The notes under the pieces: generated by a model
Seen by the model: the letters and a program-made list of their open reading frames with translations, nothing else
What the model was told of the DNA's origin: nothing
Database searches by the model: none
Translations under genes and position numbers: made by a program
Assembly (NCBI RefSeq): GCF_000613185.1
Contig: NZ_CCBB010000002.1
Location: 372,001 to 436,000 of the forward strand
Source of the DNA: Mycolicibacterium cosmeticum
GTDB lineage: Bacteria > Actinomycetota > Actinomycetes > Mycobacteriales > Mycobacteriaceae
Reading direction: 5' to 3'
DNA: 64,000 nucleotides
Part shown: positions 36,042 to 52,843 of the stretch, in pieces
Position numbering within the stretch: position 1 is the first letter of the stretch
How the letters are laid out: every line of letters starts with the position of its first letter

Positions 36042-36362
36042 TCAGAGCTGGAACTCAGGTAGCTCGACCGTCATGCCATCCCATGCCTCGGAGGCGGCCA
36101 TCTGGCAGGACAGCCTCGACGTCGGCTGACGCTCGGGGTTCATCGCGAGCATCTCCTCTTCGTTGGCGCCGCAGAGTCCCACCGTGTCCGACCACTCGGG
36201 AGCGACGATCACGTGGCATGTTCCGCATGCGGCTTCCCCTCCGCAATCGCCGTCGATGCCGGGCACCGCGTTATTGACCGCGATCTGCATCAAGGACTGC
36301 CCTTCGGTCAAGGGGGCTTCGTACTTCTCGCCGTCATGAGAGACGAAGGTGACGACTGCCAT
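36042..36362 (-). CDS. [2Fe-2S] ferredoxin, putidaredoxin type
   Basis: 106 residues. Cluster ligands CGGEAACGTC plus a fourth Cys in SRLSCQM follow the adrenodoxin/putidaredoxin spacing (C-x5-C-x2-C-xn-C). It shuttles electrons from the reductase to CYP153. ATG with GAGGAG upstream. First gene of the operon, 30 bases before the P450, and divergent from an AraC regulator. Confidence 0.94.
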   Translation of the reverse strand: MAVVTFVSHDGEKYEAPLTEGQSLMQIAVNNAVPGIDGDCGGEAACGTCHVIVAPEWSDTVGLCGANEEEMLAMNPERQPTSRLSCQMAASEAWDGMTVELPEFQL

Positions 36363-37753: not shown

Positions 37754-38920
37754 ATGTCACACGACCAGCCGGCCATCATTGGTGCCGCCGAACTCACTCC
37801 AGGAAGAAACGTTCCGAACACCTCCACTGAATTGCATGTGCGCGCCGCGGTCGCGGCTCTCGCCGACGCAGGGGTGGCCCCAGACGAGGTCGACGGTCTC
37901 GTGTGCGCTGGGCCGATGACGAACGAGGGCTCGGTCTTCCTGTCCGAGGACCTCATGGACTATCTCGGGCTGCACAACCTGAAACTTCAGATGACCTGTC
38001 AGCTTGGCGGCGGGACCCATCTGGCCATGACGCGCATGGCGAGTAACGTCATCGCCCGAGGCGAGGCCGAGACGGTGCTGGTCGTGTCGGCGGGCAAGTT
38101 TCCGCCGATACGCGATGGCGGGCGCGAACTGATGGCGCTGGTGTGTGACCACGCGTTCGAGATGCCCTACGGACCGTCCGTGCCGGCGCTCTACGGCTTG
38201 ATCGCGCAGGCATGGATGCACGAGACAGGACAGGGCAAGGCGGACATCGCCGAGGTCACCGCGTCGCAGGACCGCTGGGCGGCGCTGAACCCCGCGGCGA
38301 TCGCGCACCGCTCGCAACGCCTGAGCGTGGAGGACGTGCTGGCGTCCCGACCGATCGCCGGGCCGTTCCACTTCTACCACTGCTCGATTCCCTGCGAGGG
38401 CGGTGGCGCGCTCGTGCTGGGCTCGGCCCGCCGGGCCCGCCAGGGCAAACACCGGCCGGTACACCTGCTCGGGTTTGGAGAGGGTCACACCCACGGCTTC
38501 CTGACCTCGCTGGCCCGCCCCGGTCGTACCGGGGCCGCCCGTTCTGGTCCGATGGCCTTCGAGCGCTCCGGACGGGCGCCGGCCGACATCGACATCGCCT
38601 TGCTCTACGACGCCTTCGCCTCAAACCCGGCGATGATCCTGGAGGAGGCGGGCTTCGTGAAGCCCGGCGGGGCAGGCGATTTCTACCGTGACGGCCGCGC
38701 CGATCCGGGCGGCGACCTTCCGGTGAACACTGACGGCGGCCTGATCCGGTTCGGGCACACCGGGACCTCCTCTGGCATTTCGCAGATCCTCGAGGGTTAT
38801 TGGCAGTTGTCCGGTCGCGCCGAGGGCCGTCAGGTCTTCGGGGCGGACACCGCGTTCGTGCACAGCTACGGCTCGATGCTGTGCAGTCACGTCAGCATGG
38901 TGATGGAGGGAGCGTCATGA
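37754..38920 (+). CDS. Thiolase-like protein (lipid-transfer/acetyl-CoA acetyltransferase type)
   Basis: 388 residues. SCP2-thiolase-like: AIIGAAELTPGRN, LVCAGPMTNEG, LQMTCQLGGGTHLAMTRM, VLVVSAGKFPP and the C-terminal GLIRFGHTGTSSGISQILEGYWQL. It is followed in the same operon by an OB-fold Zn-ribbon protein; such pairs form complexes that catalyse aldol or thiolytic steps (compare steroid Ltp2-type aldolases with DUF35 partners). ATG at 37754 chosen for GGAG just upstream. First gene of the ten-gene operon; its stop overlaps the next ATG. Confidence 0.86.
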   Translation: MSHDQPAIIGAAELTPGRNVPNTSTELHVRAAVAALADAGVAPDEVDGLVCAGPMTNEGSVFLSEDLMDYLGLHNLKLQMTCQLGGGTHLAMTRMASNVIARGEAETVLVVSAGKFPPIRDGGRELMALVCDHAFEMPYGPSVPALYGLIAQAWMHETGQGKADIAEVTASQDRWAALNPAAIAHRSQRLSVEDVLASRPIAGPFHFYHCSIPCEGGGALVLGSARRARQGKHRPVHLLGFGEGHTHGFLTSLARPGRTGAARSGPMAFERSGRAPADIDIALLYDAFASNPAMILEEAGFVKPGGAGDFYRDGRADPGGDLPVNTDGGLIRFGHTGTSSGISQILEGYWQLSGRAEGRQVFGADTAFVHSYGSMLCSHVSMVMEGAS

Positions 38921-39354
38921 CCGCAGCTTCGAGTTCGCTCGACGGTTTGCACGATCCTGAGGCGCTGCCGCCGCTGACCGATGTCAACCGTCCCTACTTC
39001 GCAGCAGCGGCCCGCGGCGTACTCGTCTTCCAGCGGTGCGCGAACGGCCACCCGTTCCTCTACCCGCGGCTGGTGTGTCCCGTCTGCCATGACGGTGAGT
39101 TGGCCTGGGAGACCGCGGCGGGTACTGGTGAGATCGTCAGTTTCGCGCCGGTGTACCGCCCCCCGTGGGACTCGTTCCCGCGCAGCGAGCCGTACGTCGT
39201 CGTGCTCGTTCGTCTGGACGAGGGGCCGCAGTTGTTGGCCAGTCTCGAGGGCGTGGCCCCCGATGAAGTTGCGATCGGCGCAAGAGTGCGCGCAGTGTTC
39301 GAGCGGGTGAACGAGGACCTTGGGCTGGTCCGATTCAGGCCGGCGGCGTCGTGA
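38917..39354 (+). CDS. DUF35 OB-fold, Zn-ribbon partner protein
   Basis: 145 residues. Rubredoxin-like Zn-ribbon around QRCANGHPFLYPRLVCPVCHDG, then an OB-fold (GTGEIVSFAPVYRPPWDSFPR, EPYVVVLVRLDEGPQLLASLEG). Proteins of this family are obligate partners of the thiolase-like protein encoded immediately upstream, stabilising or channelling acyl-CoA. Start overlaps the thiolase stop by four bases, strongly supporting the pairing. Confidence 0.9.
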   Translation: MTAASSSLDGLHDPEALPPLTDVNRPYFAAAARGVLVFQRCANGHPFLYPRLVCPVCHDGELAWETAAGTGEIVSFAPVYRPPWDSFPRSEPYVVVLVRLDEGPQLLASLEGVAPDEVAIGARVRAVFERVNEDLGLVRFRPAAS

Positions 39355-40394
39355 GCACGTACGGGGTCTCGGTGCTCGGCGCGGACTTGGCCACCCTTGT
39401 CGAGACCGCCGAGGCTACCGACCTCGCCGGCTTCGACGCCGCCTGGGCCTCGGAGTTCTACTCGCGCTCCGGCTCGATCTCGATGGCCGCGATGGCCGCG
39501 CGCACAAAGCGCTGCCGCATCGGGTCGTCGATCCTGTATGGCGTCGGGCGCAGCCCGCTCGTGCTCGCCACCGAGGCGCGTGACCTCGACGAGCTTTCAG
39601 GCGGGCGCGTCGTACTCGGGCTCGGCAACGGCACACGCCGCATGATGAGCGACTGGCACGGCGTGGAGGACACCTCCGCTCCCGCTCTGCGCATGGAGGA
39701 GCTGGTCCCGCTCGTGCGTCGGATCTGGAACCTGCACGAGGGCCCCGTGCGCCATGAGGGGCGCTTCTACCGGATGAATCTCGTCCCAACCGGCGACGTC
39801 GCGCCGCCGAAGCGAGCGATCCCGATCATCACCGCGGGCGTGCGTCCGCGGATGTGCGAGGTGGCAGGGCGCGTAGCCGACGGGTTGGCTGGTCATCCGC
39901 TGTTCACCACGAACTACGTCGAGGAGGTCGCCCGCCCAGCCGTCGTGCGCGGTGCGGAGCGGGCCGGACGCGATCCCGCCGACATTGAGATCGTCTCAAT
40001 GGTCATCTGCGCGGTGCACGACGACCCACAGATCGCACGTCGTGAGGCCGCGCAGCAGATCGCGTTCTACTCCTCGGTGAAGACCTACGAGCACGTGCTC
40101 GACGTCAGCGGTTTCGCCAGGCAGGGAGCGGCCATCCGCGACGCGTTCGCGCGGCGTGACCTGCCGGCCATGTTCGCCGCGGTCACCGACGACATGATCG
40201 ACGCGATGGCGGTGGCCGGCACCGCCGCCGAGGTCCGAGAAGGGCTGCGCCGCTACGAGGGCGTGCTGGACCACATCGTTCTCTACTCACCCTCGATTGG
40301 CCTCGCGCCCGAGCGCATCGCCGAGAACCTCGGCAGCCTCATTCGCGATTGTGCGCCGGCCTTCGCCGGCGGGAAAGGTGACCAGAGTGGCTGA
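39351..40394 (+). CDS. LLM-class flavin-dependent oxidoreductase (F420/FMN)
   Basis: 347-residue luciferase-like barrel. Features: TDLAGFDAAWASEFYSRSGS, RIGSSILYGVGRSPLVLATEARDLDELSGGRVVLGLGNGT and a C-terminal GTAAEVREGLRRYEG. In mycobacteria this class often uses coenzyme F420 to oxidise alcohols or reduce enones. Coupled to neighbours by four-base (upstream) and eight-base (downstream) overlaps. Substrate not deducible. Confidence 0.87.
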   Translation: MSTYGVSVLGADLATLVETAEATDLAGFDAAWASEFYSRSGSISMAAMAARTKRCRIGSSILYGVGRSPLVLATEARDLDELSGGRVVLGLGNGTRRMMSDWHGVEDTSAPALRMEELVPLVRRIWNLHEGPVRHEGRFYRMNLVPTGDVAPPKRAIPIITAGVRPRMCEVAGRVADGLAGHPLFTTNYVEEVARPAVVRGAERAGRDPADIEIVSMVICAVHDDPQIARREAAQQIAFYSSVKTYEHVLDVSGFARQGAAIRDAFARRDLPAMFAAVTDDMIDAMAVAGTAAEVREGLRRYEGVLDHIVLYSPSIGLAPERIAENLGSLIRDCAPAFAGGKGDQSG

Positions 40395-40845
40395 CGCATC
40401 GCTCATCGGGACGCAACTCGGGAGGACCACGTTTCCCGTCGACCGGTCCAAAGTGCGCGAGTTCGCACTTTCGCTCGGCGACCGCGACCCGGTCTACCAG
40501 GACGTCGCGGCCGCCCGCGCCGCCGGCTTCGGCGCGATCCCCGCTCCTCCGACCTTCGTAGTCTCCTCGGCTCACTGGCGCGCCGACGACGATATGTTCG
40601 GCGCCCTCGGGCTCGACCTGCGACGCGTACTGCACGGTGAGTGCGGCTGGGAGTATTTCGCGCCGGTGTTCGTCGGCGACGAGCTCACCGAGACTCGTCG
40701 GGTGTCGAACGTGACCAGCCGCGAGGGCAAGCGCGGCGGCACCATGACAATCGTGACGATCGAGACCGACTTCACCAACCAGCGCGACGAACTCGTCGTG
40801 CGCCAGACCGACGTCTTGATCGAAACCGGAGGCTCCACCCAATGA
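40387..40845 (+). CDS. MaoC-like hotdog protein, N-terminal (FAS1-DH) type
   Basis: 152 residues, single hotdog. Pattern SKVREFALSLGDRDPVYQDVAAARAAGFGAIPAPPTF is the substrate-binding half of heterodimeric (3R)-hydroxyacyl-CoA dehydratases such as HadAB or the ChsH-type enzymes; it lacks the catalytic D-x4-H of the partner. GTG at 40387 chosen; GTG at 40378 also possible. It overlaps the preceding and following genes and should form a heterodimer with the next product. Confidence 0.84.
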   Translation: MADASLIGTQLGRTTFPVDRSKVREFALSLGDRDPVYQDVAAARAAGFGAIPAPPTFVVSSAHWRADDDMFGALGLDLRRVLHGECGWEYFAPVFVGDELTETRRVSNVTSREGKRGGTMTIVTIETDFTNQRDELVVRQTDVLIETGGSTQ

Positions 40846-41267
40846 CGACATCCCCCGCGCCGGTGGCGTTGGCCATCGGCGACGAGATGCCGAGCTCACA
40901 GTTCGGCCCGCTGACGCGCTCGCACATCGTCCGCTACGCCGGCTCCGGCGGCGACTTCAACCCGATCCACCACGACGAGGAGTTCGCCCGCGCGGCCGGC
41001 ATGCCCGGTGTGTTCGGTATGGGACTGCTGCACGGCGGTGTGCTCGCGCAGCGGCTGACCGCCTGGGTGGGGCTGGCCAACATCCGCTCGTTCCGCATCC
41101 GGTTCACTGGTCAGGTATGGCCCGGTGACCTGCTCAGCTTCGGCGGCAGGGTCACCGGCGTGCGCGAGGCCGGAGGGCACCAGGTGGCAGACCTCGAACT
41201 CGTGGTCACGCGCCAGACCGGCGAACCCGCGATAAAGGGGAGCGCCGTCGTGCAGGTGGCCCGGTGA
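40842..41267 (+). CDS. MaoC-like hydratase, catalytic hotdog subunit
   Basis: 141 residues. The hydratase-2 motif YAGSGGDFNPIHHDEEFARAAGMPGVFGMGLLHGG carries the catalytic Asp and His. Adds water to an enoyl-CoA, probably together with the preceding non-catalytic hotdog protein. ATG overlaps the previous stop by four bases; stop overlaps the next start by four. Confidence 0.88.
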   Translation: MTTSPAPVALAIGDEMPSSQFGPLTRSHIVRYAGSGGDFNPIHHDEEFARAAGMPGVFGMGLLHGGVLAQRLTAWVGLANIRSFRIRFTGQVWPGDLLSFGGRVTGVREAGGHQVADLELVVTRQTGEPAIKGSAVVQVAR

Positions 41268-41791
41268 GCGCGCCAACGAGCGACGTCACCGGCCTCGGGA
41301 TGACGTTCGGGACCTTCGACGAAGGCCGGGCGTGGGTCGGTCATCGCTCCGAACCGCGGCATGCGTGGTTCCCGATCGACCGCTCGATGGTGTTGTACTA
41401 CTGCTCGCTCGTCGAGGACGCGAACCCCCGTTACTGGGAGGGTGAGGACTGCCCGCCCGGGCTGCTGATGAGCCTCGGCTTCGCGCCGCAGTGGGTGCCC
41501 GGGTACCTAGCGCGTGCCGACATGATGTTCGCGCTCAGCGTCCCGTTGCCGGGCCACCACATCATCAACGCCTCGACGACGACGGAGTTCGAACGCCGGC
41601 CCCGGGTAGGCGATCACGTGTCGATCGTGGAGGAGATCGCCTCGATCTCCGAGCCGAAGACGACGCGGGTGGGCACCGGCGTGTTCATCACCACGGTGAG
41701 CACCTTCTCCGACCAGCACGGTGAGGTCATCGGCCGCAACACCAACGTGCTCTTCCGATACGACACTGCCGATAGTGACGGCGCATCATGA
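41264..41791 (+). CDS. MaoC-like hotdog protein, second N-terminal-type subunit
   Basis: 175 residues. Hotdog pattern of the non-catalytic type: WFPIDRSMVLYYCSLVEDANPRYWE, PLPGHHIINASTTTEFERRPRVGDHVSIVEEI, VFITTVSTFSDQHGEVIGRNTNVLFRY. Resembles the first half of two-subunit hydratases. GTG start overlaps the previous stop. Likely partner is the product of the next gene. Confidence 0.8.
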   Translation: MSAPTSDVTGLGMTFGTFDEGRAWVGHRSEPRHAWFPIDRSMVLYYCSLVEDANPRYWEGEDCPPGLLMSLGFAPQWVPGYLARADMMFALSVPLPGHHIINASTTTEFERRPRVGDHVSIVEEIASISEPKTTRVGTGVFITTVSTFSDQHGEVIGRNTNVLFRYDTADSDGAS

Positions 41792-42258
41792 ACGACTCCG
41801 CCGAGCACAGCATGGTCCGCGTCCCCGTGCGGTTCGAGGACATCGCCGTCGGCGACACCCTGACGCCCGTCTCGATCGACATCAGCTACAAGCGCATCTG
41901 CATGAACGCGGCTTCGACATGGGACTGGTTCCCCGGTCACCACGACCCCGACTACGCGCGCAGCCAGGGCCAGCGCACGATCTACCTGTCAACCCTCTTC
42001 TTCCATGGCTTCATCGACCGCGGCCTCAACGAATGGGCCGGACCCGACGCACTCATCCGGCGCCGCAGAATCTCAATGATCCGGTCGATCTACCCGGGCC
42101 AGACCGCGACCCTGAGCGGCAAGGTCGTGGCCAAACGCGACGATGGCGGACGGCGCCTCGTCGACCTCGAGTTGCTCGTCTCGAGCGAAGCTGGTCCGTG
42201 CGTGCCGAGTGAAGCCACCGTTGAGCTGGCCGACCCGTTTGTCGAGGTGCCGGGGTGA
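41788..42258 (+). CDS. MaoC-like hotdog protein, fourth in tandem
   Basis: 156 residues, hotdog: VRFEDIAVGDTLTPVSIDISYKRICMNAASTWDWFPGHHDPDYARSQGQ, with aspartate/histidine residues (PGHHDPDYA) near the place of the hydratase-2 motif, though the motif itself is altered. RRRRISMIRSIYPGQTATLSGKVV follows. Together with the preceding product it forms a second potential heterodimer, perhaps a hydratase for a different intermediate. ATG overlaps the previous stop. Confidence 0.8.
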   Translation: MNDSAEHSMVRVPVRFEDIAVGDTLTPVSIDISYKRICMNAASTWDWFPGHHDPDYARSQGQRTIYLSTLFFHGFIDRGLNEWAGPDALIRRRRISMIRSIYPGQTATLSGKVVAKRDDGGRRLVDLELLVSSEAGPCVPSEATVELADPFVEVPG

Positions 42259-42301
42259 ACTGCCACTCACATGCGAGGCGACGGTGAGGGACGGAGGCTC
42301 G

Positions 42302-43069
42302 GTGGCCGAGCAACCGATTCGCTACGAGGTCGTCGACAGCGTGGCCTGGCTGACGATCAACCGGCCCGAGGCGCGCAACGCGCTGAACAACGCTGTGCGC
42401 ACGGGGCTTTTCGACGCGGTACGCCGCTTCAATGACGACGACGCGGCGAAGGTGCTCGTCCTCACCGGCGTGGGCGATAAGGCGTTCTGTGCCGGCGGGG
42501 ACTTGAAGGAGATGGCGCACAACGCGCTCAAGGTTCCGCCGAAGGACTTCGCTCCGCAGTTCGGCCGCAACATCGATGTCGCGAAGCCGACGATCGCGGC
42601 CGTCAACGGTGTCGCTTTCGCCGGGGGCTTCCTGCTCGCGCAGCAGTGCGACCTGGTCGTGGCTGCCGAACACGCGACCTTCGCCGTCAGCGAGGTCAAA
42701 GTCGGCCGCGGGTCGCCCTGGGCGGCACCCCTGTCCTGGCTGGTGCCTCCGCGCATCGCCATGCAGATCCTGCTGACCGGCGAGCCGATCACCGCCGAGC
42801 GCGCCCACCAGGTCGGCTTGGTCAACGAGGTGGTGCCAGCCGATCAGTTGCGCGAGCGTACCCAGCAGTTGGCGCTCAGCATCGCCGCGAACGCACCGCT
42901 ATCGGTGCTTGCGTCCAAGCGCACCGTGTACCTCTCGGCACAGCACCCCCTCGCCGCCGCCTACGACCTGGCCGACGAGATATGGGAGCCGGTCTATCTG
43001 AGCGACGACGCGCAGGAAGGCCCTACGGCGTTCCGCGAGAAGCGCGCACCACAGTGGAAGGGACGCTGA
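42302..43069 (+). CDS. Enoyl-CoA hydratase/isomerase (crotonase) family protein
   Basis: 255 residues. Oxyanion-hole segments AFCAGGDLKEM and AAVNGVAFAGGFLLAQQCD, then FAVSEVKVGRGSPWAAPLSW. Of the two crotonase glutamates, the first (usually in GGGCELA) is replaced (GGFLLA), while the second (SEVK) is kept, so simple hydration is not assured. In an Atu-type pathway the corresponding enzyme is AtuE, isohexenylglutaconyl-CoA hydratase. GTG at 42302 follows GGAGG (42293-42297); an in-frame GTG at 42284 is possible. Confidence 0.86.
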   Translation: MAEQPIRYEVVDSVAWLTINRPEARNALNNAVRTGLFDAVRRFNDDDAAKVLVLTGVGDKAFCAGGDLKEMAHNALKVPPKDFAPQFGRNIDVAKPTIAAVNGVAFAGGFLLAQQCDLVVAAEHATFAVSEVKVGRGSPWAAPLSWLVPPRIAMQILLTGEPITAERAHQVGLVNEVVPADQLRERTQQLALSIAANAPLSVLASKRTVYLSAQHPLAAAYDLADEIWEPVYLSDDAQEGPTAFREKRAPQWKGR

Positions 43070-43070
43070 C

Positions 43071-43883
43071 ATGGCGGTGACCATGCAGTCGGTAATCGTC
43101 GACATCGAAGCCGAAACGGCCGCGTTGCGCGAACTCATCGCACCGCTGCCCGAAGGTCCGCGCGGCTGGGACGCGCCGACTCCGGCCGTGGGCTGGGCGA
43201 TCCGCGACCAGATCAGCCATCTGGCGTTCTTCGACGACGTGGCGGTGCGCTCGGCCACCGACCCCGACGGTTTCAGCAGCGACTACCTGCCGATGATGGC
43301 CGACGGAAGCATCTCACCCGACGTCATCGCTGAGCGCTACCGTCAAATGCCGGCTGCCGACCTGCTCGCGTGGTTCGACACGTCGCGTGCAGCCCTCGTT
43401 GCGGCGTTCGCGGACATTGCCCCGGCGACCCGCCTGCCGTGGTTCGGGCCGCCGATGAGCGCGGTCTCGTCGCTGACAGCGCGACTCATGGAGACCTGGG
43501 CGCACGGCCAGGACATCGTCGACGCGCTCGGCGCGACCCGCGAGGCCACGGCACGGCTGCGGCACGTGGCCCACATCGGGGTGGGTGCGCGCGCTTTCAG
43601 CTACCTGGCCAACGGTCTGGACCTCCCCGCGGACCCGGTACGCGTCGAGCTGACCGCTCCGGACGGCAGCGTCTGGACGTGGGGGCCAGCCGACGCCGCC
43701 AACCGCGTGAGCGGGCCGGCGCTGGACTTTTGCCTGTTGGTGACCCAACGCCGCCACCGCGACGACACCGCTTTGGTCGCCGACGGACCGCTGGCCGACC
43801 AGTGGCTCGCGATCGCCCAGGCCTTCGCGGGGCCCCCTGGCGGCGGGCGCGTGGCGGGCCAGTTCGCAGGGGGGCAGCGGTGA
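43071..43883 (+). CDS. TIGR03084-family protein (mycothiol-dependent-enzyme-like, DinB fold)
   Basis: 270 residues. N-terminal helical bundle with metal-site histidines in DQISHLAFFDD and METWAHGQDI, matching the maleylpyruvate isomerase N-terminal/DinB-like fold. The C-terminal part (VRVELTAPDGSVWTWGPADAANRVSG) is a small alpha/beta domain. Members occur in actinobacterial catabolic operons. Reaction unknown; a mycothiol-dependent isomerisation or hydrolysis is a family-based guess. Start follows the crotonase stop by one base; stop overlaps the AtuA gene by four. Confidence 0.83.
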   Translation: MAVTMQSVIVDIEAETAALRELIAPLPEGPRGWDAPTPAVGWAIRDQISHLAFFDDVAVRSATDPDGFSSDYLPMMADGSISPDVIAERYRQMPAADLLAWFDTSRAALVAAFADIAPATRLPWFGPPMSAVSSLTARLMETWAHGQDIVDALGATREATARLRHVAHIGVGARAFSYLANGLDLPADPVRVELTAPDGSVWTWGPADAANRVSGPALDFCLLVTQRRHRDDTALVADGPLADQWLAIAQAFAGPPGGGRVAGQFAGGQR

Positions 43884-45604
43884 GCGTCCCGGTCCGCATC
43901 GGCAACTGCTCCGGCTTTTACGGCGACCGCATCGCCGCAGCCCGCGAGATGGTCGAGGGCGGTCCGATCGATGTCCTGTGCGGTGACTATTTGGCCGAGC
44001 TGACCATGCTCATCCTGGCCAAGGCCCAGGCCAAAGACCCGTCCGGCGGGTACGCGCGGACTTTCCTCACCCAAATGGAACAGGTGCTGGGCACCTGTCT
44101 CGATCGTGGCATCAAGGTCGTCGCGAACGCGGGCGGGCTCAATCCCGCCGGCTTGGCCGCCGCGTTGCGCGAGCTGTCCGCACGTCTCGGCCTCACCGCG
44201 CGCGTCGCGCACGTCGAGGGCGACGACCTACGTGGCGGCCTCCACGCAATCACGCCGCCCGTCGGCGACATCAAACCGGTATCGGCCAACGCCTACCTCG
44301 GCGCCTGGGGCATCACCGAGGCGCTGCGTTCGGGCGCCGACGTCGTCGTGACCGGCCGGGTCACCGACGCATCCCTGGTGGTCGGTCCAGCCGCCTGGTG
44401 GCACAGCTGGGCGCCCGAGGACTGGGATCGGCTCGCGGGCGCGGTCGTCGCCGGGCACGTGATCGAGTGCGGCCCTCAGGCGACAGGCGGCAACTACGCG
44501 TTCCTCGACGAGATCACCGACCGCCGCTACCCGGGGTTTCCGATCGCCGAGGTCGCCGAGGACGGCTCTTCGGTGATCACGAAGCATCCCGGCACGGGAG
44601 GATTGGTCTCAGTCGGCACGGTCACCGCCCAGCTGCTCTACGAGATCGCTGAACCTGCCTACCTCGGCCCCGACGTCGTCGCCCACTTCGACACCATCCG
44701 GCTGGCTCAACAGGATGAGCACCGCGTCGCGATCAGCGGTACGAAAGGCAGTCCGCCGCCGGACACGTTGAAGGTGGCGTTGAATGAGGTGGGCGGCTTC
44801 CGTAACACGATGACCATGGTGCTCACCGGCCTCGACATCGAGGCCAAGGCGGCCTTCGCCGAACAGCAGCTCTTCGACGTTCTCGGCGGACGCGACGCCT
44901 TCGACGAAGTCGACGTGAGGCTGTTGCGTTTCGACGTCTCCGATGCACCGACGAACGAGCAAGCCTGCGCGCACCTGCGTGTGACGGTCAAGGACGCCGA
45001 CCCGCGCAAGGTGGGCCGAGCATTCTCCGGCGGGGTCATGGAGATCGCCCTGGCCGGTTTCGCCGGCTTCCACACCACCACGCCACCGTCCTCGGAGACC
45101 GCCTTCGGCATCTACCGGCCGGCCTACGTTGCGCGCTCGGCCCTCACGCACGTACTGGTCGACGCCGACGGCACACGGCACGAGATCCCCGACCCGCCGA
45201 CCGGTGCCGTCCCGCCGGCTGGGATTGCCCCGCCCGCGAAGCTGCCGGTGCCGTCCGGGCCGACACGTCGTGCGCCGCTCGGGTCGGTACTCGGCGCGCG
45301 GTCCGGAGACAAGGGCGGCAACGCTAACCTCGGCCTGTGGGCACGGGATGACCCTGGGTACGCGTGGGCGCGCGACTACTTCAGCGTCGAGCGGCTGCGC
45401 ACACTGCTCGGGCCGGAGACGGCGCACCTGCCCATCGAGCGCTTCGAACTGCCGAACTTGCGCGCCCTCAACGTGGTGGTGCACGGCTTGCTCGGTGACG
45501 GAGTGGCCTCCTCGACCCGGCCGGACGCGCAGGCCAAGGGGCTCGGGGAATATGTGCGGTCCCGCATGGTGGACATTCCCCAGTCGCTGCTCGTCACACA
45601 CTAA
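43880..45604 (+). CDS. AtuA/DUF1446-family protein (acyclic terpene utilisation)
   Basis: 574 residues. DUF1446 core starts IGNCSGFYGDRIAAAREMV and includes DVLCGDYLAELTM, VANAGGLNPAGLA, VTGRVTDASLVVGP, ECGPQATGGNYAFL and KHPGTGGLVSVGTVTAQLLYEI. The C-terminal ~100 residues (GSVLGARSGDKGGNANLGLWAR) form the AtuA-like small domain, fused here in one chain. AtuA is required for citronellol/geraniol use in Pseudomonas, though its reaction is undetermined. GTG start overlaps the TIGR03084 gene. Last gene of the operon; overlaps the convergent TetR gene by four bases. Confidence 0.88.
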   Translation: MSVPVRIGNCSGFYGDRIAAAREMVEGGPIDVLCGDYLAELTMLILAKAQAKDPSGGYARTFLTQMEQVLGTCLDRGIKVVANAGGLNPAGLAAALRELSARLGLTARVAHVEGDDLRGGLHAITPPVGDIKPVSANAYLGAWGITEALRSGADVVVTGRVTDASLVVGPAAWWHSWAPEDWDRLAGAVVAGHVIECGPQATGGNYAFLDEITDRRYPGFPIAEVAEDGSSVITKHPGTGGLVSVGTVTAQLLYEIAEPAYLGPDVVAHFDTIRLAQQDEHRVAISGTKGSPPPDTLKVALNEVGGFRNTMTMVLTGLDIEAKAAFAEQQLFDVLGGRDAFDEVDVRLLRFDVSDAPTNEQACAHLRVTVKDADPRKVGRAFSGGVMEIALAGFAGFHTTTPPSSETAFGIYRPAYVARSALTHVLVDADGTRHEIPDPPTGAVPPAGIAPPAKLPVPSGPTRRAPLGSVLGARSGDKGGNANLGLWARDDPGYAWARDYFSVERLRTLLGPETAHLPIERFELPNLRALNVVVHGLLGDGVASSTRPDAQAKGLGEYVRSRMVDIPQSLLVTH

Positions 45605-46194
45605 ATCCGGTGCGGGGCGCCGTCTACCTGCTGTGTAACCGCGCCGCTGAACAGCGCCGCAACGGCCGCGGCGGCCAGCATCGCCTCAATCGTCGCGTCG
45701 TCCAGCGACGCCGGCATGTACGCGGACGCGTTGAGCAATGACAGCACGGCGGCGACCAGGCCCTGTGCGCGCTCACGGTCCAGATCGCCCCGTGCTCGTA
45801 CGAGCGCGTCGACCCAGAAGGACTCGTACCTGTGCTGTCGGCGTCGCAGGGCACGGGTCGCCAGCGGCGACAGCGAGCGGTGCTCGCGGGCGTAGACGGC
45901 CAACAGGCCGCGTCGTCGCGCGCCGAAGGCCGCGTGTAGGTCGACAAGGGCGTGCAGGACCTCCGTCGGTGTGCCGGCGTTGGTGGCGCGCCGGGCGCCA
46001 GCCAGCAGCTCAGTCATGGCGGCGTCGCATAACTCGCGCAGGATCGCGTCCTTGTTCTGAAAGTGCCGGTAGACGGCCGGCCCGCTCACCCCTGCTGCGG
46101 CACCGATGTCGTCGATGCCCACGGCGTGAAAGCCTTGCCGCGCGAACAGGTCGGCGGCGGCCTCGAGGAGCAGTTTGCGGCGCAAACCGGCCAC
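45601..46194 (-). CDS. TetR-family transcriptional regulator
   Basis: 197 residues. DNA-binding part: LLLEAAADLFARQGFHAVGIDDIGAAAGVSGPAVYRHFQNKDAIL. The remaining helices resemble KstR2/FadR-like acyl-CoA sensors of mycobacteria (AREHRSLSPLATRALRRRQHRY). It lies between the plus-strand operon and the carboxylase operon, the natural candidate for binding the perfect palindrome at 52887-52912. GTG start at 46194; overlaps the AtuA gene tail-to-tail. Confidence 0.88.
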   Translation of the reverse strand: MAGLRRKLLLEAAADLFARQGFHAVGIDDIGAAAGVSGPAVYRHFQNKDAILRELCDAAMTELLAGARRATNAGTPTEVLHALVDLHAAFGARRRGLLAVYAREHRSLSPLATRALRRRQHRYESFWVDALVRARGDLDRERAQGLVAAVLSLLNASAYMPASLDDATIEAMLAAAAVAALFSGAVTQQVDGAPHRI

Positions 46195-46413
46195 TTTCAG
46201 GCCTCCTGTCGATTTGTGGTTACGTTGTTCGCCGTCCGATCCGCTGGGCCGGGCTGGGATCCTACCGGCGCTGGGGTTGCCTGCGTCGGCACCCGCCGCA
46301 CCAAATCAAGGGAGGTGAACGAAACCGCTAGCCCCCGCCGATGCTGTCGCATCCTCTTCTCAGTTCATGATTTAGGGGCCCTGCTTCGAACCCGCGATGT
46401 GCAGCGGCACGAC

Positions 46414-47967: not shown

Positions 47968-47993
47968 GCGATTCCCTTTCATTCCGCGGCGAC

Positions 47994-49148
47994 TCAGTAG
48001 GACGCGGGCAGTTTCAGGCTGTGCTGCGCCACGAAGTTGAGGATCATTTCGCGGCTGATCGGCGCGGTGCGCATGAGCCGGGCCGGACCCCACAACGTGG
48101 CGAGGCCGTACTCGGTGGCCATGCCGTTGCCGCCGTGGGTCTGAATCGCCTGGTCGAGCGCCAGGATGCCCGCCTCGGCTGCGGCATATTTCGCCATGTT
48201 CGACGCCTCACCCGACCCCGGATCGCCGGCGTCGTGCAGGGCGGCGGCACGCTGAGTCATCAACCGGGCCAGCTCAACCTGGATCTTGGCGTGGGCGAGC
48301 GGGTGCGATACGCCCTGGTGCGAGCCGATCGGCGCTCCCCACACGTGGCGGTTGCGGGCGTAATCGGCGGCTTTATCCAGCGCGTAGCGACCGATGCCGT
48401 TGCCGAGCGCCGCCCCCATGATTCGCTCCGGGTTCAGGCCCATGAAGACCTGGCGCAGGCCCTCGTTCTCCGCGCCGATAAGGTTGGCGGCCGGCACGCG
48501 GACGTCATCGAAGAATAGAGTGAACTGCTTCTCTGGAGTGACCGCCTGCACCGGGATGAGTGACTTGGTGAGCCCGCGGACATCGGTGGGCACGACGAGC
48601 AAGCTGAGTAGTCCGCGACCACTGTCGTTGGTAGACGTTCGGGTGACGACCAGGATCGCTTCGGCTTCGTCGACACCAGAAATGTAGTACTTGGTGCCGT
48701 TGATGACCCAGTCGTCGCCGTCGCGTTTCGCGGTCGTGGAGATGTTGTGCGAGTTCGAGCCCGCGTCCGGCTCGGTGATCGCGAATGCCATGATCGTCTC
48801 GCCGCTGGCGATGCCCGGCAGCCACTGCTGCTTGAGTTCCTCACTGCCGAATGCCTGGATGATCGTGCCGCAGATGGTCGGCGAGACGACGGTCATCAGC
48901 AGCGGGCAGCCCGCCGCGGCGAGCTCCTCACCGACGATCTGCATGTCGTAGATGCCGCCGCCGCCGCCGCCGTACTGCTCGGAAAGGTTCACCCCGAGGA
49001 AGCCCTGTTTGCCCACGGCCTGCCACAGCTCGGTGCTTTTCGCGCCGGCCAGCGACTTTTCCAGGTAGTACTCGTGTCCGAAGTCCTTGGCGATCTCGGC
49101 GACCGCCTTGCGCAGGTCCTGACGTTCCGCTGTCTCGTGCAATTCCAT
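47994..49148 (-). CDS. Acyl-CoA dehydrogenase
   Basis: 384 residues, FAD enzyme. Signatures: MAFAITEPDAGSNSHNISTTA (FAD/acyl site), DDWVINGTKYYISG, and the C-terminal QTHGGNGMATEYGLATLWGPAR. Forms an alpha,beta double bond in an acyl-CoA. The catalytic base seen in MCAD-type enzymes is not at its usual place near the C-terminus, so the base may lie elsewhere as in isovaleryl-CoA-type enzymes. ATG at 49148 follows GAGGAG. In the operon context it prepares a branched 2-enoyl-CoA for carboxylation. Confidence 0.92.
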   Translation of the reverse strand: MELHETAERQDLRKAVAEIAKDFGHEYYLEKSLAGAKSTELWQAVGKQGFLGVNLSEQYGGGGGGIYDMQIVGEELAAAGCPLLMTVVSPTICGTIIQAFGSEELKQQWLPGIASGETIMAFAITEPDAGSNSHNISTTAKRDGDDWVINGTKYYISGVDEAEAILVVTRTSTNDSGRGLLSLLVVPTDVRGLTKSLIPVQAVTPEKQFTLFFDDVRVPAANLIGAENEGLRQVFMGLNPERIMGAALGNGIGRYALDKAADYARNRHVWGAPIGSHQGVSHPLAHAKIQVELARLMTQRAAALHDAGDPGSGEASNMAKYAAAEAGILALDQAIQTHGGNGMATEYGLATLWGPARLMRTAPISREMILNFVAQHSLKLPASY

Positions 49149-49202
49149 GACACTCCTCACATCGGTATCGACGCGCCACCGATCGGGAGCGCGCCGGGTT
49201 GA

Positions 49203-51242
49203 TTAGAGCTCGGTGGCGTCCGACGCCACTTCACCGCCGTCCACCGCCTCGACCACGGCGAGGACGTCACCGCTCGAGACCTGATGGCCGACCTGGACCG
49301 GCAGGGCGTTCAGCACCCCGTCAATCGGGCTCGCGACGGTGTGCTCCATCTTCATCGTCTCCAGGACGACAAGGGTTTGGCCCGCCGAGACCGTCTCGCC
49401 CTCGGCGACTGGCAGTCGGACCACCGAACCCGGCATCGGCGCGGTGAGCGACCCGGGCGGGTTCAGAGTGCTCGGGTCGACGAAGCGTGGCGCCAGCCGC
49501 AGGGCGGAGTAGCCGGCGACCGAGTCGAGGTGGGCAACATCGCCGTCGAGGACGACATCATAAGTGCGGCGCACCCCGTCGACGCGCAGCACCACCCGCT
49601 CGCTACTGCCCTCGACAACCTCGACGTCGGCCAACGGCTCGTCGTCGACCTGCAGGCAGGTCCCTGTCGAACCTAACGTGTACCCGACGCGCACTTCGCG
49701 CCCACCCTGGGTCTGCCAGGTTGTGGTCTGCGGCTGCGAAGGGTTGTTGCGCCAGCCGGCGGGCAACGTGGCCTGCAGAGTTGCGACGGCACGCCGCGCG
49801 GCCACCCCGGCCACGGTCGCCGCGACGGCGTGCAGGCGCTCGGACTGCGTGTCTGGGAGGGCAGCGCCGAGTTGGGCGACGTCGTGTCGGTCAAGGAACC
49901 CAGTGTCGGTGCCCCGCCCGGCGAACTCGTCATGGCGCAGGACGCGAACAAGCAGGTTGCGATTGGTGGTCACGCCGTGAATACGGGCGCCGGCTAGCGC
50001 CGCCGAGAGGCTGGCAAGTGCCTCGTCGCGCGTTGGTGCCCACGCGATGACCTTGGCCAGCAGCGAATCGTAGTAATGACTGATGACCGAACCGGCACGA
50101 AAACCCGAGTCAACCCGCACGCCGGCAAGCGCCGGGACATCCAAGGTGCGCAGGGTGCCGGTACAGGGCCGGTAGTCATCGGCCGGATCCTCGGCGCACA
50201 GACGGGCCTCGACCGCGTGACCGCGAATTCGCGGGTTGTGCATCTCCTCAGGCAGCGGGCGGCCCATGGCTACGAGCAGCTGGGCACGCACCAGGTCGAG
50301 GCCGGTGATCAGCTCGGTAACCGGGTGCTCGACCTGCAGCCGGGTGTTCATCTCGAGGAAGGCGAAGGAGTCGGCTTTGCCATCCTGAGCGGCGTCGTAG
50401 ACGAACTCGACCGTCCCGGCGCCTACGTAGCCGACGGCGCGCGCGGCGGCGATGGCGGCCTCGCTCATCCGAGCGCGCAACGCGTCGTCGACGACCGGTG
50501 ACGGCGCCTCCTCGATCACCTTCTGGTGTCGACGCTGCACGGAGCACTCGCGCTCGAACAGAGAGACGACGTTTCCGTGCGTGTCGGCCATGATCTGGAT
50601 CTCGACGTGGCGTGGGCGCTGGACGTAACGCTCGAGGAAGACGGTGCCGTCGGCGAACGCTGCGGCGGCCTCACGCGAAGCGGAGGTGACCGCTTCGTCG
50701 AGCTCGTCCGGCGACGCGACAATGCGCATGCCTCGGCCACCGCCGCCAGCGCTGGCCTTGACCAGCACGGGGTAGCCGACGTCGGCGGCCAGCTTCGCCA
50801 GCTGCTCGGCCGATAGCCCCGTCGTGTCGCCACCGGGCAGCACAGGCACCCCCGCGTCGGACATCGTCTTCTTGGCCTGCAGCTTCGAGCCCATCGCGTC
50901 GATCGCCCCGGGCGGCGGACCGATGAAGACGAGGTCGGCGGCGGCACAGGCGCGCGCGAACCCGGCGTTTTCCGAAAGGAAGCCGTAGCCGGGGTGTACT
51001 GCGTCCGCGCCGGTGAGCGAGGCAGCGGCGATGATCCGGTGGATGTCGAGGTAGGTCTCGGCGGCAGACGAGCCGGGAAGGTGCACGGCCTCGTCGGCGT
51101 CGGCGACGTGCCACGCGTCGGCGTCGGCGTCGGAATAGACCGCGACGGTGGCGATCCCGAGATCGCGGCAAGTGCGGAACACCCGCAGCGCGATCTCGCC
51201 ACGGTTGGCGACCAGGACCTTGCGGATCTTGGGCATCGCCAT
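49203..51242 (-). CDS. Acyl-CoA carboxylase alpha subunit (biotin carboxylase + BCCP)
   Basis: 679 residues. Biotin carboxylase domain: KVLVANRGEIALRVFRTCRD, ATP-grasp KASAGGGGRGMRIV, FLEMNTRLQVEHPVTE. A linker of about 120 residues is followed by the biotinyl domain with the biotin Lys near residue 634 in LETMKMEHTV. Size matches MCC/GCC-type alpha subunits. ATG at 51242 overlaps the beta-subunit stop by one base (TGATG), giving a stoichiometric pair. Carboxylates biotin with bicarbonate and ATP. Confidence 0.95.
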   Translation of the reverse strand: MAMPKIRKVLVANRGEIALRVFRTCRDLGIATVAVYSDADADAWHVADADEAVHLPGSSAAETYLDIHRIIAAASLTGADAVHPGYGFLSENAGFARACAAADLVFIGPPPGAIDAMGSKLQAKKTMSDAGVPVLPGGDTTGLSAEQLAKLAADVGYPVLVKASAGGGGRGMRIVASPDELDEAVTSASREAAAAFADGTVFLERYVQRPRHVEIQIMADTHGNVVSLFERECSVQRRHQKVIEEAPSPVVDDALRARMSEAAIAAARAVGYVGAGTVEFVYDAAQDGKADSFAFLEMNTRLQVEHPVTELITGLDLVRAQLLVAMGRPLPEEMHNPRIRGHAVEARLCAEDPADDYRPCTGTLRTLDVPALAGVRVDSGFRAGSVISHYYDSLLAKVIAWAPTRDEALASLSAALAGARIHGVTTNRNLLVRVLRHDEFAGRGTDTGFLDRHDVAQLGAALPDTQSERLHAVAATVAGVAARRAVATLQATLPAGWRNNPSQPQTTTWQTQGGREVRVGYTLGSTGTCLQVDDEPLADVEVVEGSSERVVLRVDGVRRTYDVVLDGDVAHLDSVAGYSALRLAPRFVDPSTLNPPGSLTAPMPGSVVRLPVAEGETVSAGQTLVVLETMKMEHTVASPIDGVLNALPVQVGHQVSSGDVLAVVEAVDGGEVASDATEL

Positions 51243-52843
51243 CACATCCGGAACACGCCGTAGCCACGCTGGCCACGGACCTCGCCGTTGTGGATCACCG
51301 ACAGGCAAAACCCGAGAACGGTCCGCGTATCGCGGGGATCGATGATCCCGTCGTCGTAAAGTCGGCCGCTGTTGGCCAGTGCGACGGATTCGCGCTCGAT
51401 CTGTTCCTCGACGGCGGCGCGCATCTGGGCGTCGGCCTCCTCGTCGAAGGGCAGCCCGCGGTCGGCGGCGGACTCGCGCGCCACGATGGACAGCACTCCG
51501 GCCAGTTGCGCCGGACCCATCACGGCCGACTTCGAGTTAGGCCAAGCGAATAGGAAACGCGGCGAGTACGATCGCCCGCACATGCCGTAGTTCCCGGCAC
51601 CGTAGGACGCACCCATGGTGATGGTCACGTGGGGGACCGTGCTGTTGGATACGGCGTTGATCATCTTGGCGCCGTCCTTGATGATGCCGCCCTGTTCGTA
51701 CTCGGCACCGACCATGAAACCGGTGGTGTTCTGCAGGAAGATGAGGGGGGTGTCGATCTGATTTGCCAGTTGGATGAACTGCGAACCTTTCTCGGCCTCC
51801 TCACTGAACAGGATGCCCCGTGCGTTTGCGAGGATGCCGACCGGGAAGCCGTGGATCGAGGCCCAGCCGGTGACGAGTGACGTGCCGTAGAGAGGTTTGA
51901 ACTCGTCGAAGGCCGAGCCGTCGACCACTCGGGCGATGACGTCGCGGGGGTCGAAGGGCACCTTCGGATCGACGGAGGCGATGCCGAGCAGCTGATCGGG
52001 GTCGTGCACCGGTGGGTGCGGCGGCGTGGTGGGTCCGGGGCCGTTCTTCCGCCAGTTGAGCCGCGCCATGATGCGACGGCCGATGCGGATCGCATCCTGC
52101 TCGTCCTCGGCCATGTAATCGGCCAGCCCCGAGGTGCGGGCGTGCATGTCGGCGCCGCCGAGCGACTCGTCATCGGAGACCTCGCCCGTGGCCATCTTGA
52201 CCAGCGGCGGACCGCCGAGGAACACCTTGGAACGGTTGCGCACCATCACGACGTAGTCGCACATGCCCGGGACGTACGCACCTCCCGCGGTCGAGTTGCC
52301 GAAGACCAAGGCCAGTGTCGGCAGCCCCGCTGCGCTGTGCTGGGTCAAGTCGTGGAACAGCTGTCCGCCGGGCACGAAGATCTCTGCCTGTGTGGGCAGG
52401 TCGGCGCCGCCAGATTCGACGATGTTGATGATGGGCAGTCGGTTCTCCCGCGCGATGGCCATGCCGCGGAACACCTTGCGGAAGGTATAAGGGTTCGATG
52501 CGCCGCCGCGGACGGTGGGGTCGTGGGCGATGATCATCGACTCGATGCCCTCGACCACGCCGATGCCTACCACCACGCTACCGCCGACGGGGAACTTACT
52601 GCCCCAGGCGGCGAAGGGGCATAGTTCGAGGAACGCCGTGTCGGGGTCGAGCATCAGCTCGATGCGCTCGCGGACAAGCAGCTTGCCCCGCTTATGGTGG
52701 CGCGCAACGTATTTCGCGCCGCCGCCGCCGTTGACCAGCGCCAGTTGCTCCGCGATGGTGTCGAGTTGCGCGCTCAGTCCTTCGCGGTTCTTGAGATAGC
52801 CGGGCGCGGTGTCGTCGACCCGATCGGGCAGGACCTGTACCAA
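51242..52843 (-). CDS. Acyl-CoA carboxylase beta subunit (carboxyltransferase)
   Basis: 533 residues. Both crotonase-like halves are present: VVESGGADLPTQAEI..., GNSTAGGAYVPGM, LGGADMHARTSGLADYMAEDE and ITMGASYGAGNYGMCGRSYSPRFLFAWPN, the latter typical of methylcrotonyl-/geranyl-CoA carboxylases rather than acetyl/propionyl-CoA carboxylases. Substrate-pocket segments (GGASNPYTFRKV, FHDLTQHSAAG) differ from what I recall of MCC, so the substrate may be a longer branched enoyl-CoA. TTG start at 52843 is supported by GGAGGG seven bases upstream. First gene of its operon. Confidence 0.94.
   Translation of the reverse strand: MVQVLPDRVDDTAPGYLKNREGLSAQLDTIAEQLALVNGGGGAKYVARHHKRGKLLVRERIELMLDPDTAFLELCPFAAWGSKFPVGGSVVVGIGVVEGIESMIIAHDPTVRGGASNPYTFRKVFRGMAIARENRLPIINIVESGGADLPTQAEIFVPGGQLFHDLTQHSAAGLPTLALVFGNSTAGGAYVPGMCDYVVMVRNRSKVFLGGPPLVKMATGEVSDDESLGGADMHARTSGLADYMAEDEQDAIRIGRRIMARLNWRKNGPGPTTPPHPPVHDPDQLLGIASVDPKVPFDPRDVIARVVDGSAFDEFKPLYGTSLVTGWASIHGFPVGILANARGILFSEEAEKGSQFIQLANQIDTPLIFLQNTTGFMVGAEYEQGGIIKDGAKMINAVSNSTVPHVTITMGASYGAGNYGMCGRSYSPRFLFAWPNSKSAVMGPAQLAGVLSIVARESAADRGLPFDEEADAQMRAAVEEQIERESVALANSGRLYDDGIIDPRDTRTVLGFCLSVIHNGEVRGQRGYGVFRM

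What the first reader, a model, noticed from the sequence alone, without database searches (positions are those of the whole stretch)
37754..52843. Possible new Atu-like pathway: carboxylase, AtuA, four hotdog proteins and a thiolase/DUF35 pair
An acyl-CoA ligase, acyl-CoA dehydrogenase, MCC/GCC-type carboxylase, crotonase and AtuA correspond to the steps of acyclic terpene utilisation. But the SDRs of the Pseudomonas Atu cluster are absent, and LLM oxidoreductase, TIGR03084 protein, two hotdog pairs and a thiolase-like/DUF35 complex are added. The carboxyltransferase pocket segments differ from those I know in MCC, and the crotonase lacks one catalytic Glu. This combination suggests a distinct route for a branched, terpenoid or isoprenoid substrate ending in retro-aldol or thiolytic cleavage.
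Basis: partly seen in the sequence, partly recalled or inferred. Interest (0 to 1): 0.75.

Follow-up and report, generated by a model that had tools for sequence, protein, structure and literature searches.

The report
Mobile branched-lipid degradation cluster (Atu-type)
A mycobacterium-like genome carries a transferable gene cluster that looks built to break down methyl-branched, terpene-like molecules by adding CO2 to the branch and cutting it off, and it links a little-known protein family (TIGR03084) to the poorly understood enzyme AtuA.

Summary
In detail: each enzyme type named is where stated. The carboxylase is unlikely to be a leucine-type MCC: its pocket segment lacks MCC's Phe and three-residue insert and has Gly, as in geranyl-CoA carboxylase, and another CT of this genome, in a leucine-type operon, keeps the MCC signature. 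Crotonase-TIGR03084-AtuA is contiguous in 63 of 80 named loci. Hotdog pair 3/4, the thiolase-like protein and DUF35 recur with the module in a differently ordered operon (G002), but not in the stretches read from G020 and G034. The crotonase's missing Glu is a family trait (61 of 61 rows). The thiolase-like protein is closest to the Sal retro-aldolase without its full catalytic pair. TIGR03084 keeps a His-Glu-His set (59 of 59 rows); 54 of 55 genomes with it were counted with AtuA. The cluster lies beside CYP153, is 96-99% identical in 18 named records, and is on a megaplasmid: it is mobile. Best reading: a mobile actinobacterial variant of the Atu/GCC pathway for beta-methyl-branched acyl-CoAs. 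Substrate and reactions are inferred; nothing was assayed.

The parts
33427..34626 (-). ferredoxin reductase of the P450 system
   Evidence: Pfam Pyr_redox_2 + Reductase_C; also near ech-TIGR03084-AtuA in a second lineage
34623..36032 (-). cytochrome P450 of the CYP153 family
   Evidence: best solved match 5fyf, 704 bits; 3rwl CYP153A7, 452 bits (the CYP family of 5fyf itself is recalled)
36042..36362 (-). 2Fe-2S ferredoxin
   Evidence: PF00111
36478..37482 (+). AraC-type regulator
   Evidence: PF12833, PF12625
37754..38920 (+). thiolase-like protein, predicted Sal/Ltp2-like retro-aldolase
   Evidence: best solved match 9MYR (Sal), 177 bits; Tyr285 (YDAF) and His335 in 16 of 16 rows of at least 50% identity, Cys82 in 14 of 16
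38917..39354 (+). DUF35 (zinc ribbon + OB fold), predicted partner of the aldolase-like protein
   Evidence: PF01796 80 bits, PF12172 40 bits; C-x3-H-x8-C-x2-C spacing read from the sequence, as reported for Shy-DUF35
39351..40394 (+). LLM-class flavin/F420 oxidoreductase
   Evidence: PF00296 220 bits; below the cut-off of all 25 NCBIfam families listed
40387..40845 (+). hotdog protein 1 (FAS1-DH half)
   Evidence: PF13452 124 bits; no His in the segment GDRDPVYQD
40842..41267 (+). hotdog protein 2 (MaoC, Asp/His motif GGDFNPIH)
   Evidence: PF01575 62 bits; motif
41264..41791 (+). hotdog protein 3 (FAS1-DH half; alternative start 41300)
   Evidence: PF13452 42 bits; recurs at 69-76% with the module in L052, L053, L152
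41788..42258 (+). hotdog protein 4 (divergent MaoC, Asp/His spacing kept)
   Evidence: PF01575 23 bits, below the cut-off of 27; recurs at 74-79% in L052, L053, L152
42302..43069 (+). crotonase, first catalytic Glu replaced by Leu111, second (Glu131) kept
   Evidence: PF00378 197 bits; 61 of 61 rows of at least 60% identity
43071..43883 (+). TIGR03084 protein, predicted metal- and mycothiol-dependent enzyme
   Evidence: 361.6 bits against cut-off 247.95; PF11716 103 bits; H50, E141, H145 in 59 of 59 rows
43880..45604 (+). AtuA (predicted 3-hydroxy-3-carboxymethyl-acyl-CoA lyase)
   Evidence: PF07287 526 bits + PF23544 56 bits; AF2 model pLDDT 90; GTG start overlaps the TIGR03084 stop
45601..46194 (-). 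TetR regulator
   Evidence: PF00440 66 bits
46414..47967 (-). acyl-CoA ligase
   Evidence: PF00501 322 bits
47994..49148 (-). acyl-CoA dehydrogenase with a conserved Glu in LNPERIM (isovaleryl-CoA dehydrogenase-type base, recalled)
   Evidence: PF00441 110 bits; Glu in 37 of 37 rows of at least 50% identity
49203..51236 (-). biotin carboxylase + BCCP subunit (AtuF/LiuD type)
   Evidence: PF02786, PF21139, PF00364
51242..52843 (-). carboxyltransferase subunit with GCC-type pocket
   Evidence: PF01039 453 bits; EIFVPG---GQLF against EVFPDREHFGRIF of the genome's MCC-type CT

Best explanation
A horizontally mobile actinobacterial variant of the acyclic terpene utilisation (Atu/GCC) pathway. It degrades 3-methyl-branched (isoprenoid-type) acids that are probably made by terminal oxidation through the neighbouring CYP153. 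Proposed steps, all inferred: the ligase makes the acyl-CoA; the dehydrogenase makes the 3-methyl-2-enoyl-CoA; the GCC-type carboxylase carboxylates the methyl branch; the single-Glu crotonase, perhaps with the TIGR03084 protein, isomerises or hydrates it to the tertiary alcohol; AtuA splits off the former branch as acetate, leaving a 3-oxoacyl-CoA that thiolysis can handle. MaoC-type hotdog pairs and the Sal-like protein with DUF35 then shorten the chain by hydration and retro-aldol cleavage. Established here by sequence and comparison: gene identities, GCC-type pocket, conserved module, co-occurrence, mobility. Inferred: each reaction, the order and the substrate.
For: GCC-type pocket; 46 of 47 distinct CT rows of at least 55% identity carry no insert in that segment. 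Another CT of the genome with the MCC signature, in a leucine-type operon. ech-TIGR03084-AtuA contiguous in 63 of 80 named loci. The set without LLM and hotdog 1/2 in a differently ordered one-strand operon in G002. AtuA-like ThnQS reported to cleave a tertiary 3-hydroxy dicarboxylic acyl-CoA (review text, unpublished data). CYP153 next to AtuA modules in two arrangements. An acetate-CoA ligase-type gene in the Achromobacter AtuA operon fits acetate release, though it could also activate the substrate acid.
Against: No assay or expression data. The CT scores higher overall to MCC (544 bits) than to GCC (469 bits), so its class rests on the pocket. The pocket position is Ala in 24, Gly in 22 and Thr in 1 of 47 rows. 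The genome also has an HMG-CoA-lyase-type gene over its cut-off, so AtuA need not be the lyase. No SDR in the interval. 12 of 80 named loci show no TIGR03084 at my thresholds (L092 and L112 begin at or in AtuA, L109 has a weaker match); 15 of 69 AtuA genomes counted lack it over its cut-off. G020 and G034 carry CT, BC, dehydrogenase, ligase and the AtuA trio but no hotdog 3/4, Sal-like or DUF35 gene in the 37-40 kb read, so these are not always needed. LLM and hotdog 1/2 lack support outside the lineage. Because of the G020/G034 result I lowered this from 0.70 to 0.68.
Confidence: 0.68

Rival explanations
1. The substrate is a cyclic terpenoid or alicyclic acid: CYP153 oxidises a ring methyl group, and the carboxylase/AtuA pair opens the ring or removes an exocyclic branch, as AtuA-like ThnQS does with a cyclohexane ring.
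For: ThnQS is reported to act on a cyclohexyl substrate, and that thn operon also has MaoC proteins and thiolases. CYP153A6 hydroxylates the ring methyl of limonene and alpha-terpineol (abstract). Sal acts on steroid side chains.
Against: The GCC-type carboxylase and the dehydrogenase fit an acyclic 3-methyl acyl-CoA as well or better; no ring-specific enzyme was recognised in the interval.
Confidence: 0.2
2. It is a leucine/isovalerate (Liu) operon with an MCC.
For: Higher overall score to P. aeruginosa MCC beta than to GCC beta.
Against: Pocket lacks Phe and insert; the same genome has an operon that I read by eye as bkd-citE-MaoC-fadE19-accA1-accD1, whose CT has DREHF.
Confidence: 0.03
3. 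Two separate pathways lie side by side: an Atu-type module and a hydratase/aldolase module, joined by horizontal transfer.
For: Composition is mosaic: 38-54 kb is 66-70% GC, 32-38 kb is 61-62% and 54-64 kb is 55-63%; the two halves are on opposite strands; G020 and G034 have the Atu-type genes without hotdog 3/4, Sal-like or DUF35 in the stretch read.
Against: CT, BC, dehydrogenase, ligase, hotdog 3/4, Sal-like, DUF35, crotonase, TIGR03084 and AtuA form one co-directional operon in G002 at 51-92% identity.
Confidence: 0.09

Closest known systems
Acyclic terpene utilisation (Atu) cluster of Pseudomonas and Thauera (AtuA, AtuC/F geranyl-CoA carboxylase, AtuD, AtuE, AtuH)
   Same: AtuA, two-subunit GCC-type carboxylase, dehydrogenase, crotonase, acyl-CoA ligase, a transcriptional regulator (gene list)
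   Different: no SDRs (AtuB/AtuG) in the interval; adds TIGR03084, LLM, two hotdog pairs, Sal-like/DUF35; next to CYP153
Sal-Shy(DUF35) and Ltp2-ChsH2(DUF35) steroid side-chain aldolases
   Same: thiolase fold family, DUF35 partner, catalytic-base Tyr of YDxF/Y, hydratases nearby; window DUF35 has the C3H1 zinc spacing of Shy
   Different: Ala where Sal has its catalytic Cys304; His where Ltp2 has Tyr344 (HMMER alignments); DUF35 not fused to a MaoC domain
Mycobacterial accA2-accD2 operon (Rv0971c-Rv0976c; apparent copy in the window's genome at C1:1891978)
   Same: AtuA, GCC-type CT pocket, BC, dehydrogenases, crotonase without the first Glu
   Different: AtuA 58% identical; no TIGR03084 in the operon (the genome has an unlinked copy); two dehydrogenases; role reported as undetermined
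ThnQS AtuA-like lyase of anaerobic naphthalene degradation
   Same: AtuA family, reported cleavage of a tertiary 3-hydroxy dicarboxylic acyl-CoA
   Different: two-gene enzyme, anaerobic; no gamma-carboxylase step described in the passages read

Membership tests
geranyl-CoA carboxylase (GCC) | no Phe and no three-residue insert before it in the CT pocket; Gly at the GCC Gly162 position | tested here: met
   gapless to 5ikl in this segment, Gly in the window; criteria from PMC4673880 (passages)
geranyl-CoA carboxylase (GCC) | activity on geranyl-CoA | not testable with these tools
   needs assay
methylcrotonyl-CoA carboxylase (Liu) | pocket Phe with three-residue insert | tested here: not met
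   present in the genome's AccD1-like CT (L115, L139)
Atu cluster | AtuA + AtuC/F + AtuD/E/H homologues together | tested here: met
   at family level only; orthology to Pseudomonas AtuD/E/H not tested
Atu cluster | AtuB/AtuG short-chain dehydrogenases | tested here: not met
   none in 37754-52843
Sal/Ltp2 DUF35 aldolase | catalytic-base Tyr in the YDxF/Y motif and DUF35 partner | tested here: met
   Tyr285 in 16 of 16 rows; DUF35 adjacent
Sal/Ltp2 DUF35 aldolase | catalytic acid Cys (Sal) or second Tyr (Ltp2) | tested here: not met
   Ala287 in 16 of 16 rows; His335 at the Ltp2 Tyr344 column by HMMER alignment
SCP2-type thiolase | conserved nucleophilic Cys | tested here: inconclusive
   Cys82 in 14 of 16 rows, Val in the two 55% relatives; exact column uncertain without a structure
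mycothiol-dependent isomerase superfamily (MDMPI/DinB) | His / Glu-x3-His metal site | tested here: met
   H50, E141, H145 in 59 of 59 rows of at least 40% identity; their role as metal ligands is recalled from maleylpyruvate isomerase; PF11716 103 bits, TIGR03083 147 bits
mycothiol-dependent isomerase superfamily (MDMPI/DinB) | use of mycothiol | not testable with these tools
   needs assay
CYP153 | sequence membership | tested here: met
   704 bits to 5fyf, 452 to CYP153A7

The most novel reading that the evidence does not exclude
TIGR03084 proteins are mycothiol-dependent cis/trans isomerases that give the GCC-type carboxylase, or the following crotonase/AtuA pair, the required double-bond isomer of a 3-branched enoyl-CoA. 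That would be a thiol-cofactor step that completes a distinct actinobacterial AtuA pathway and, through the second AtuA operon found in most relatives searched, would give the orphan AccA2-AccD2 carboxylase a role in branched-chain or isoprenoid catabolism.
Probability: 0.2. Interest if true: 0.75.

Novelty: new variant of a known kind. Interest (0 to 1): 0.58.

Why it matters
AtuA has no solved relative that single-sequence phmmer finds, and its reaction in acyclic terpene catabolism rests on little evidence in the papers seen. This locus and its comparisons tie AtuA to a defined partner set and give TIGR03084 a functional context; no paper in the held library names that family. They also predict a GCC-like role for the mycobacterial AccA2-AccD2 type of carboxylase, whose role was reported as undetermined. 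All of it can be tested with purified enzymes.

Tried and rejected
Leucine pathway: rejected as likely by the CT pocket and the separate leucine-type operon. Thiolase function of the thiolase-like protein: not excluded, but less likely because its best solved match is an aldolase and Cys82 is not kept in the 55% relatives; the G002 operon has a second protein with the look of a true thiolase (NACA, HDAA, GHPIG read by eye). Literature: searches for an Atu cluster or AtuA outside Pseudomonas (lists capped at 20 of 11,127, 15 of 57, 15 of 84 and 25 of 34 papers) and for branched-alkane carboxylation in mycobacteria (one paper) listed none that I could recognise from title or abstract as describing this cluster. 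Seven papers were opened (passages or abstract only), all named in the report. No tRNA was found anywhere in the window, so no integration site can be named.

Not done: a tree of the CT family with named GCC and MCC members (the protein database was off); comparison of the AtuA model with known folds (both fold searches unavailable); correction for phylogeny in the co-occurrence test; the second structure job was not used; orthology of crotonase and dehydrogenase to Pseudomonas AtuE/AtuD.
Full report
1. What is there. The window lies at G000:C2:372001-436000 of a 6.46 Mb genome in 5 contigs. No call names the organism. I infer a mycobacterium, because genomes of its genus (G020, G034) show the same gene pattern as named Mycolicibacterium loci; the cluster itself is mobile and is no proof. 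Most + strand neighbours overlap by a few bases, and the TIGR03084 stop overlaps the AtuA GTG start at 43880. Starts were refined with the annotated copy on plasmid pMYCCH.01 of Mycolicibacterium chubuense NBB4, which has the same genes in the same order, with an added IS481 between AtuA and TetR.

2. The carboxylase. The CT scores higher overall against MCC beta (3u9r, 544 bits) than against GCC beta (5ikl, 469 bits). The published rule (PMC4673880, passages) is that MCC has a pocket Phe preceded by a three-residue insert, while GCC has Gly and no insert. In that segment the window protein aligns without gaps to GCC (AEIFVPGGQLF against AEIFVEGARGF), while the four MCC or MCC-like chains shown carry DREHF or DRDHF. 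Of 47 distinct CT rows of at least 55% identity, 46 have no insert in this segment; L109 has a longer insert upstream. The pocket position is Ala in 24, Gly in 22 and Thr in 1 (L109). So the open pocket is a family trait, and strict Gly is not. A more distant AtuA-linked CT (L132, 47%) also lacks the insert. Another CT of the same genome (50% identical) has DREHF (L115; L139) and lies in an operon that I read by eye as bkd-citE-MaoC-fadE19-accA1-accD1, i.e. leucine catabolism.

3. Conserved module. Of 80 named loci found with AtuA (the best 80 of 155), crotonase-TIGR03084-AtuA are contiguous in 63. Twelve show no TIGR03084 at my thresholds; of these L092 and L112 begin at or inside AtuA, and L109 has a weaker match. 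Of 63 loci of at least 15 kb, 19 carry the window's gene set including LLM and hotdog 1/2 (ferredoxin reductase found in 18). Of the other 44, CT is within the fetched piece in 26, BC in 27, crotonase in 38, TIGR03084 in 38, dehydrogenase in 17, ligase in 3. Hotdog 3/4 occur in two of the 44 (L052, L053), Sal-like/DUF35 in two (L053, L070), CYP153 in seven, LLM in one (L074), hotdog 1/2 in none; L103 has a MaoC-like pair of 27-35% identity next to AtuA. In genome G002 the genes CT (92%), BC (75), dehydrogenase (88), ligase (79), a further thiolase (33), hotdog 3 and 4 (73, 79), Sal-like (55), DUF35 (51), a further ligase (36), crotonase (84), TIGR03084 (78) and AtuA (83) form one co-directional operon. 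This is the best evidence that hotdog 3/4 and Sal-like/DUF35 belong to the same pathway. Against it, G020 and G034 have CT to ligase (75-91%) and the AtuA trio (76-82%) in one region without hotdog 3/4, Sal-like or DUF35 in the 37-40 kb read.

4. Crotonase. All 61 distinct rows of at least 60% identity lack the first catalytic Glu (58 Leu, 2 Met, 1 Ala) and all keep the second. More distant crotonases in AtuA loci (L109, L111, L121, L129, L130, L131, and L132 at 7126) also lack the first and keep the second. Not every crotonase in these loci does so: in L132 two keep both and one has neither, and a second crotonase downstream of AtuA in L077, L078, L091, L093, L094, L095 and L112 has neither. 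From general knowledge, crotonases with only the second Glu tend to be isomerases rather than hydratases, so either the substrate's own carboxylate helps or another protein hydrates. This is inference.

5. TIGR03084. H50, E141 and H145 are invariant in 59 of 59 distinct rows of at least 40% identity. The spacing matches the metal site of mycothiol-dependent maleylpyruvate isomerase as I recall it; membership in that superfamily rests on PF11716 (103 bits) and TIGR03083 (147 bits). In 148 genomes of the class (an even draw), 112 have some TIGR03084 match but only 55 have one over its cut-off, and only these were used. Of the 55, 54 also have AtuA in the list I counted; 15 genomes have AtuA without TIGR03084, and 78 have neither (Fisher p = 2.6e-25, not corrected for phylogeny). 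The one exception, G234, has an AtuA fragment that I had left out; with all fragments counted it would be 55 of 55, 16 and 77. 28 of 61 TIGR03084 hits lie within 1.5 kb of AtuA on the same strand. Neither family rings in the 14 control genomes. G004, G011, G017 and G029, of the window's genus, have one AtuA and an unlinked TIGR03084; G000 has an extra unlinked copy at C1:2883089. No paper of the held library contains the name TIGR03084. [quoted passage not shown]

6. AtuA. No solved structure matches by single-sequence phmmer beyond chance level (best E 0.35). An AlphaFold2 model from 37 sequences has mean pLDDT 90 and pTM 0.90. Its N-terminal part alternates strands and helices, and several invariant polar residues (N9, D36, N83, D115, N137, R160) fall at or near strand ends in the DSSP string, while others (D163, H193) do not. 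[quoted passage not shown] Against AtuA being the only lyase: the genome has an HMG-CoA-lyase-type gene (284 bits, cut-off 246), and the review compares the ThnQS step with LiuE of Pseudomonas.

7. Thiolase-like/DUF35. The best solved match is 9MYR (177 bits), which the Sal paper gives as the Sal-Shy(DUF35) bile acid aldolase complex (PMC12329534, passages). The catalytic-base Tyr is conserved (Tyr285, 16 of 16 rows), but the Sal catalytic Cys304 is Ala here in all 16, and the Ltp2 Tyr344 column holds His335. Cys82 is present in 14 of 16 and Val in two. Two 36% relatives near AtuA in Pseudonocardia (L050, L061) have YDCF. The window DUF35 has the C-x3-H-x8-C-x2-C spacing reported for Shy, while the G002 homologue has C-x2-C-x10-C-x2-C (read). 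I therefore predict an aldolase of this group with its own catalytic pair; membership in Sal or Ltp2 proper is not met.

8. Mobility. The 15.1 kb from 37754 to 52843 is 96.5-98.8% identical at DNA level in 18 of the 19 named full-set loci, 96.2% in the NBB4 plasmid and 85.8% in L045. In genomes that hold both copies, the resident AtuA of G000 is only 77-79% identical to those of G022, G037 and G047, against 95.6-98.8% for the island AtuA. The NBB4 plasmid is typed mobilizable and holds the whole stretch 33400-52900. Composition is mosaic. The CYP153 cluster with the same regulators (MYCCH_RS28400, MYCCH_RS28420) is treated in a review of NBB4 monooxygenases (PMC8784404, passages), which did not mention AtuA in the passages I read.

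9. The resident AtuA operon. At G000:C1:1891978 lies AtuA-dehydrogenase-CT-BC-dehydrogenase-crotonase, next to genes that I recognise by eye as mprA, mprB, pepD, moaB2-like and mscL. This matches, from memory, the surroundings of the Rv0971c-Rv0976c operon; the operon's gene names and the statement that the role of AccA2-AccD2 could not be determined are in PMC9283954 (passages). In one search, AtuA relatives were found in 79 of 100 relatives searched, most of them of the genus and about 57-60% identical to the window's AtuA. The resident CT has the open pocket (EIFIPGGQMF). This predicts a GCC-like role for that carboxylase type. It is a comparison only.

10. Mechanism and verdict. The most likely chemistry is R-C(CH3)=CH-CO-SCoA, carboxylated on the methyl, hydrated at the tertiary carbon, and cleaved by AtuA to acetate and R-CO-CH2-CO-SCoA. 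Terminal oxidation by CYP153 may supply the acid; CYP153A6 hydroxylates methyl groups of monoterpenes (abstract, PMC9046528). The substrate remains unknown. I rate it a new variant of a known kind.

Noticed in passing
G000:C1:1891978-1899999 (L121 11808-20000): A second AtuA operon with a GCC-type carboxyltransferase, apparently the accA2-accD2 operon of undetermined role.
   Followed up: partly
L083, L084, L085, L099; G022:C1:2098275-2099995; L038 and L123 (thiolase-like gene): In several near-identical copies of the cluster the AtuA frame is interrupted, and in L038 and L123 the end of the thiolase-like frame runs on into that of DUF35. Described only.
   Followed up: no
53461-54938: IS21-type transposition genes (Mu-transposase C-terminal domain protein and IstB) lie just beyond the carboxyltransferase; not annotated at this place on the NBB4 plasmid.
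   Followed up: no
26000-64000: GC is 65-72% in the first 26 kb, 61-66% at 26-38 kb, 66-70% in the Atu cluster and 55-63% after 54 kb; flanking genes (metal-dependent hydrolase, flavin monooxygenase, alpha/beta hydrolase) follow the NBB4 plasmid order, so the transferred stretch is probably larger than the finding.
   Followed up: partly
G000:C1:2883089-2883841: An unlinked second TIGR03084 gene (370 bits).
   Followed up: partly
L121 5247-6586: Two tandem 207-residue ORFs with the same translation that look like MspA-type porins (by eye).
   Followed up: no
22793-26830: A 1346-residue ORF that joins molybdopterin oxidoreductase, flavodoxin, FAD and NAD domains.
   Followed up: no
L132 (Achromobacter xylosoxidans A8 plasmid pA82): An AtuA-carboxylase operon with an acetate-CoA ligase-type gene, and a thiolase/OB-fold pair nearby, in a betaproteobacterium.
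   Followed up: partly
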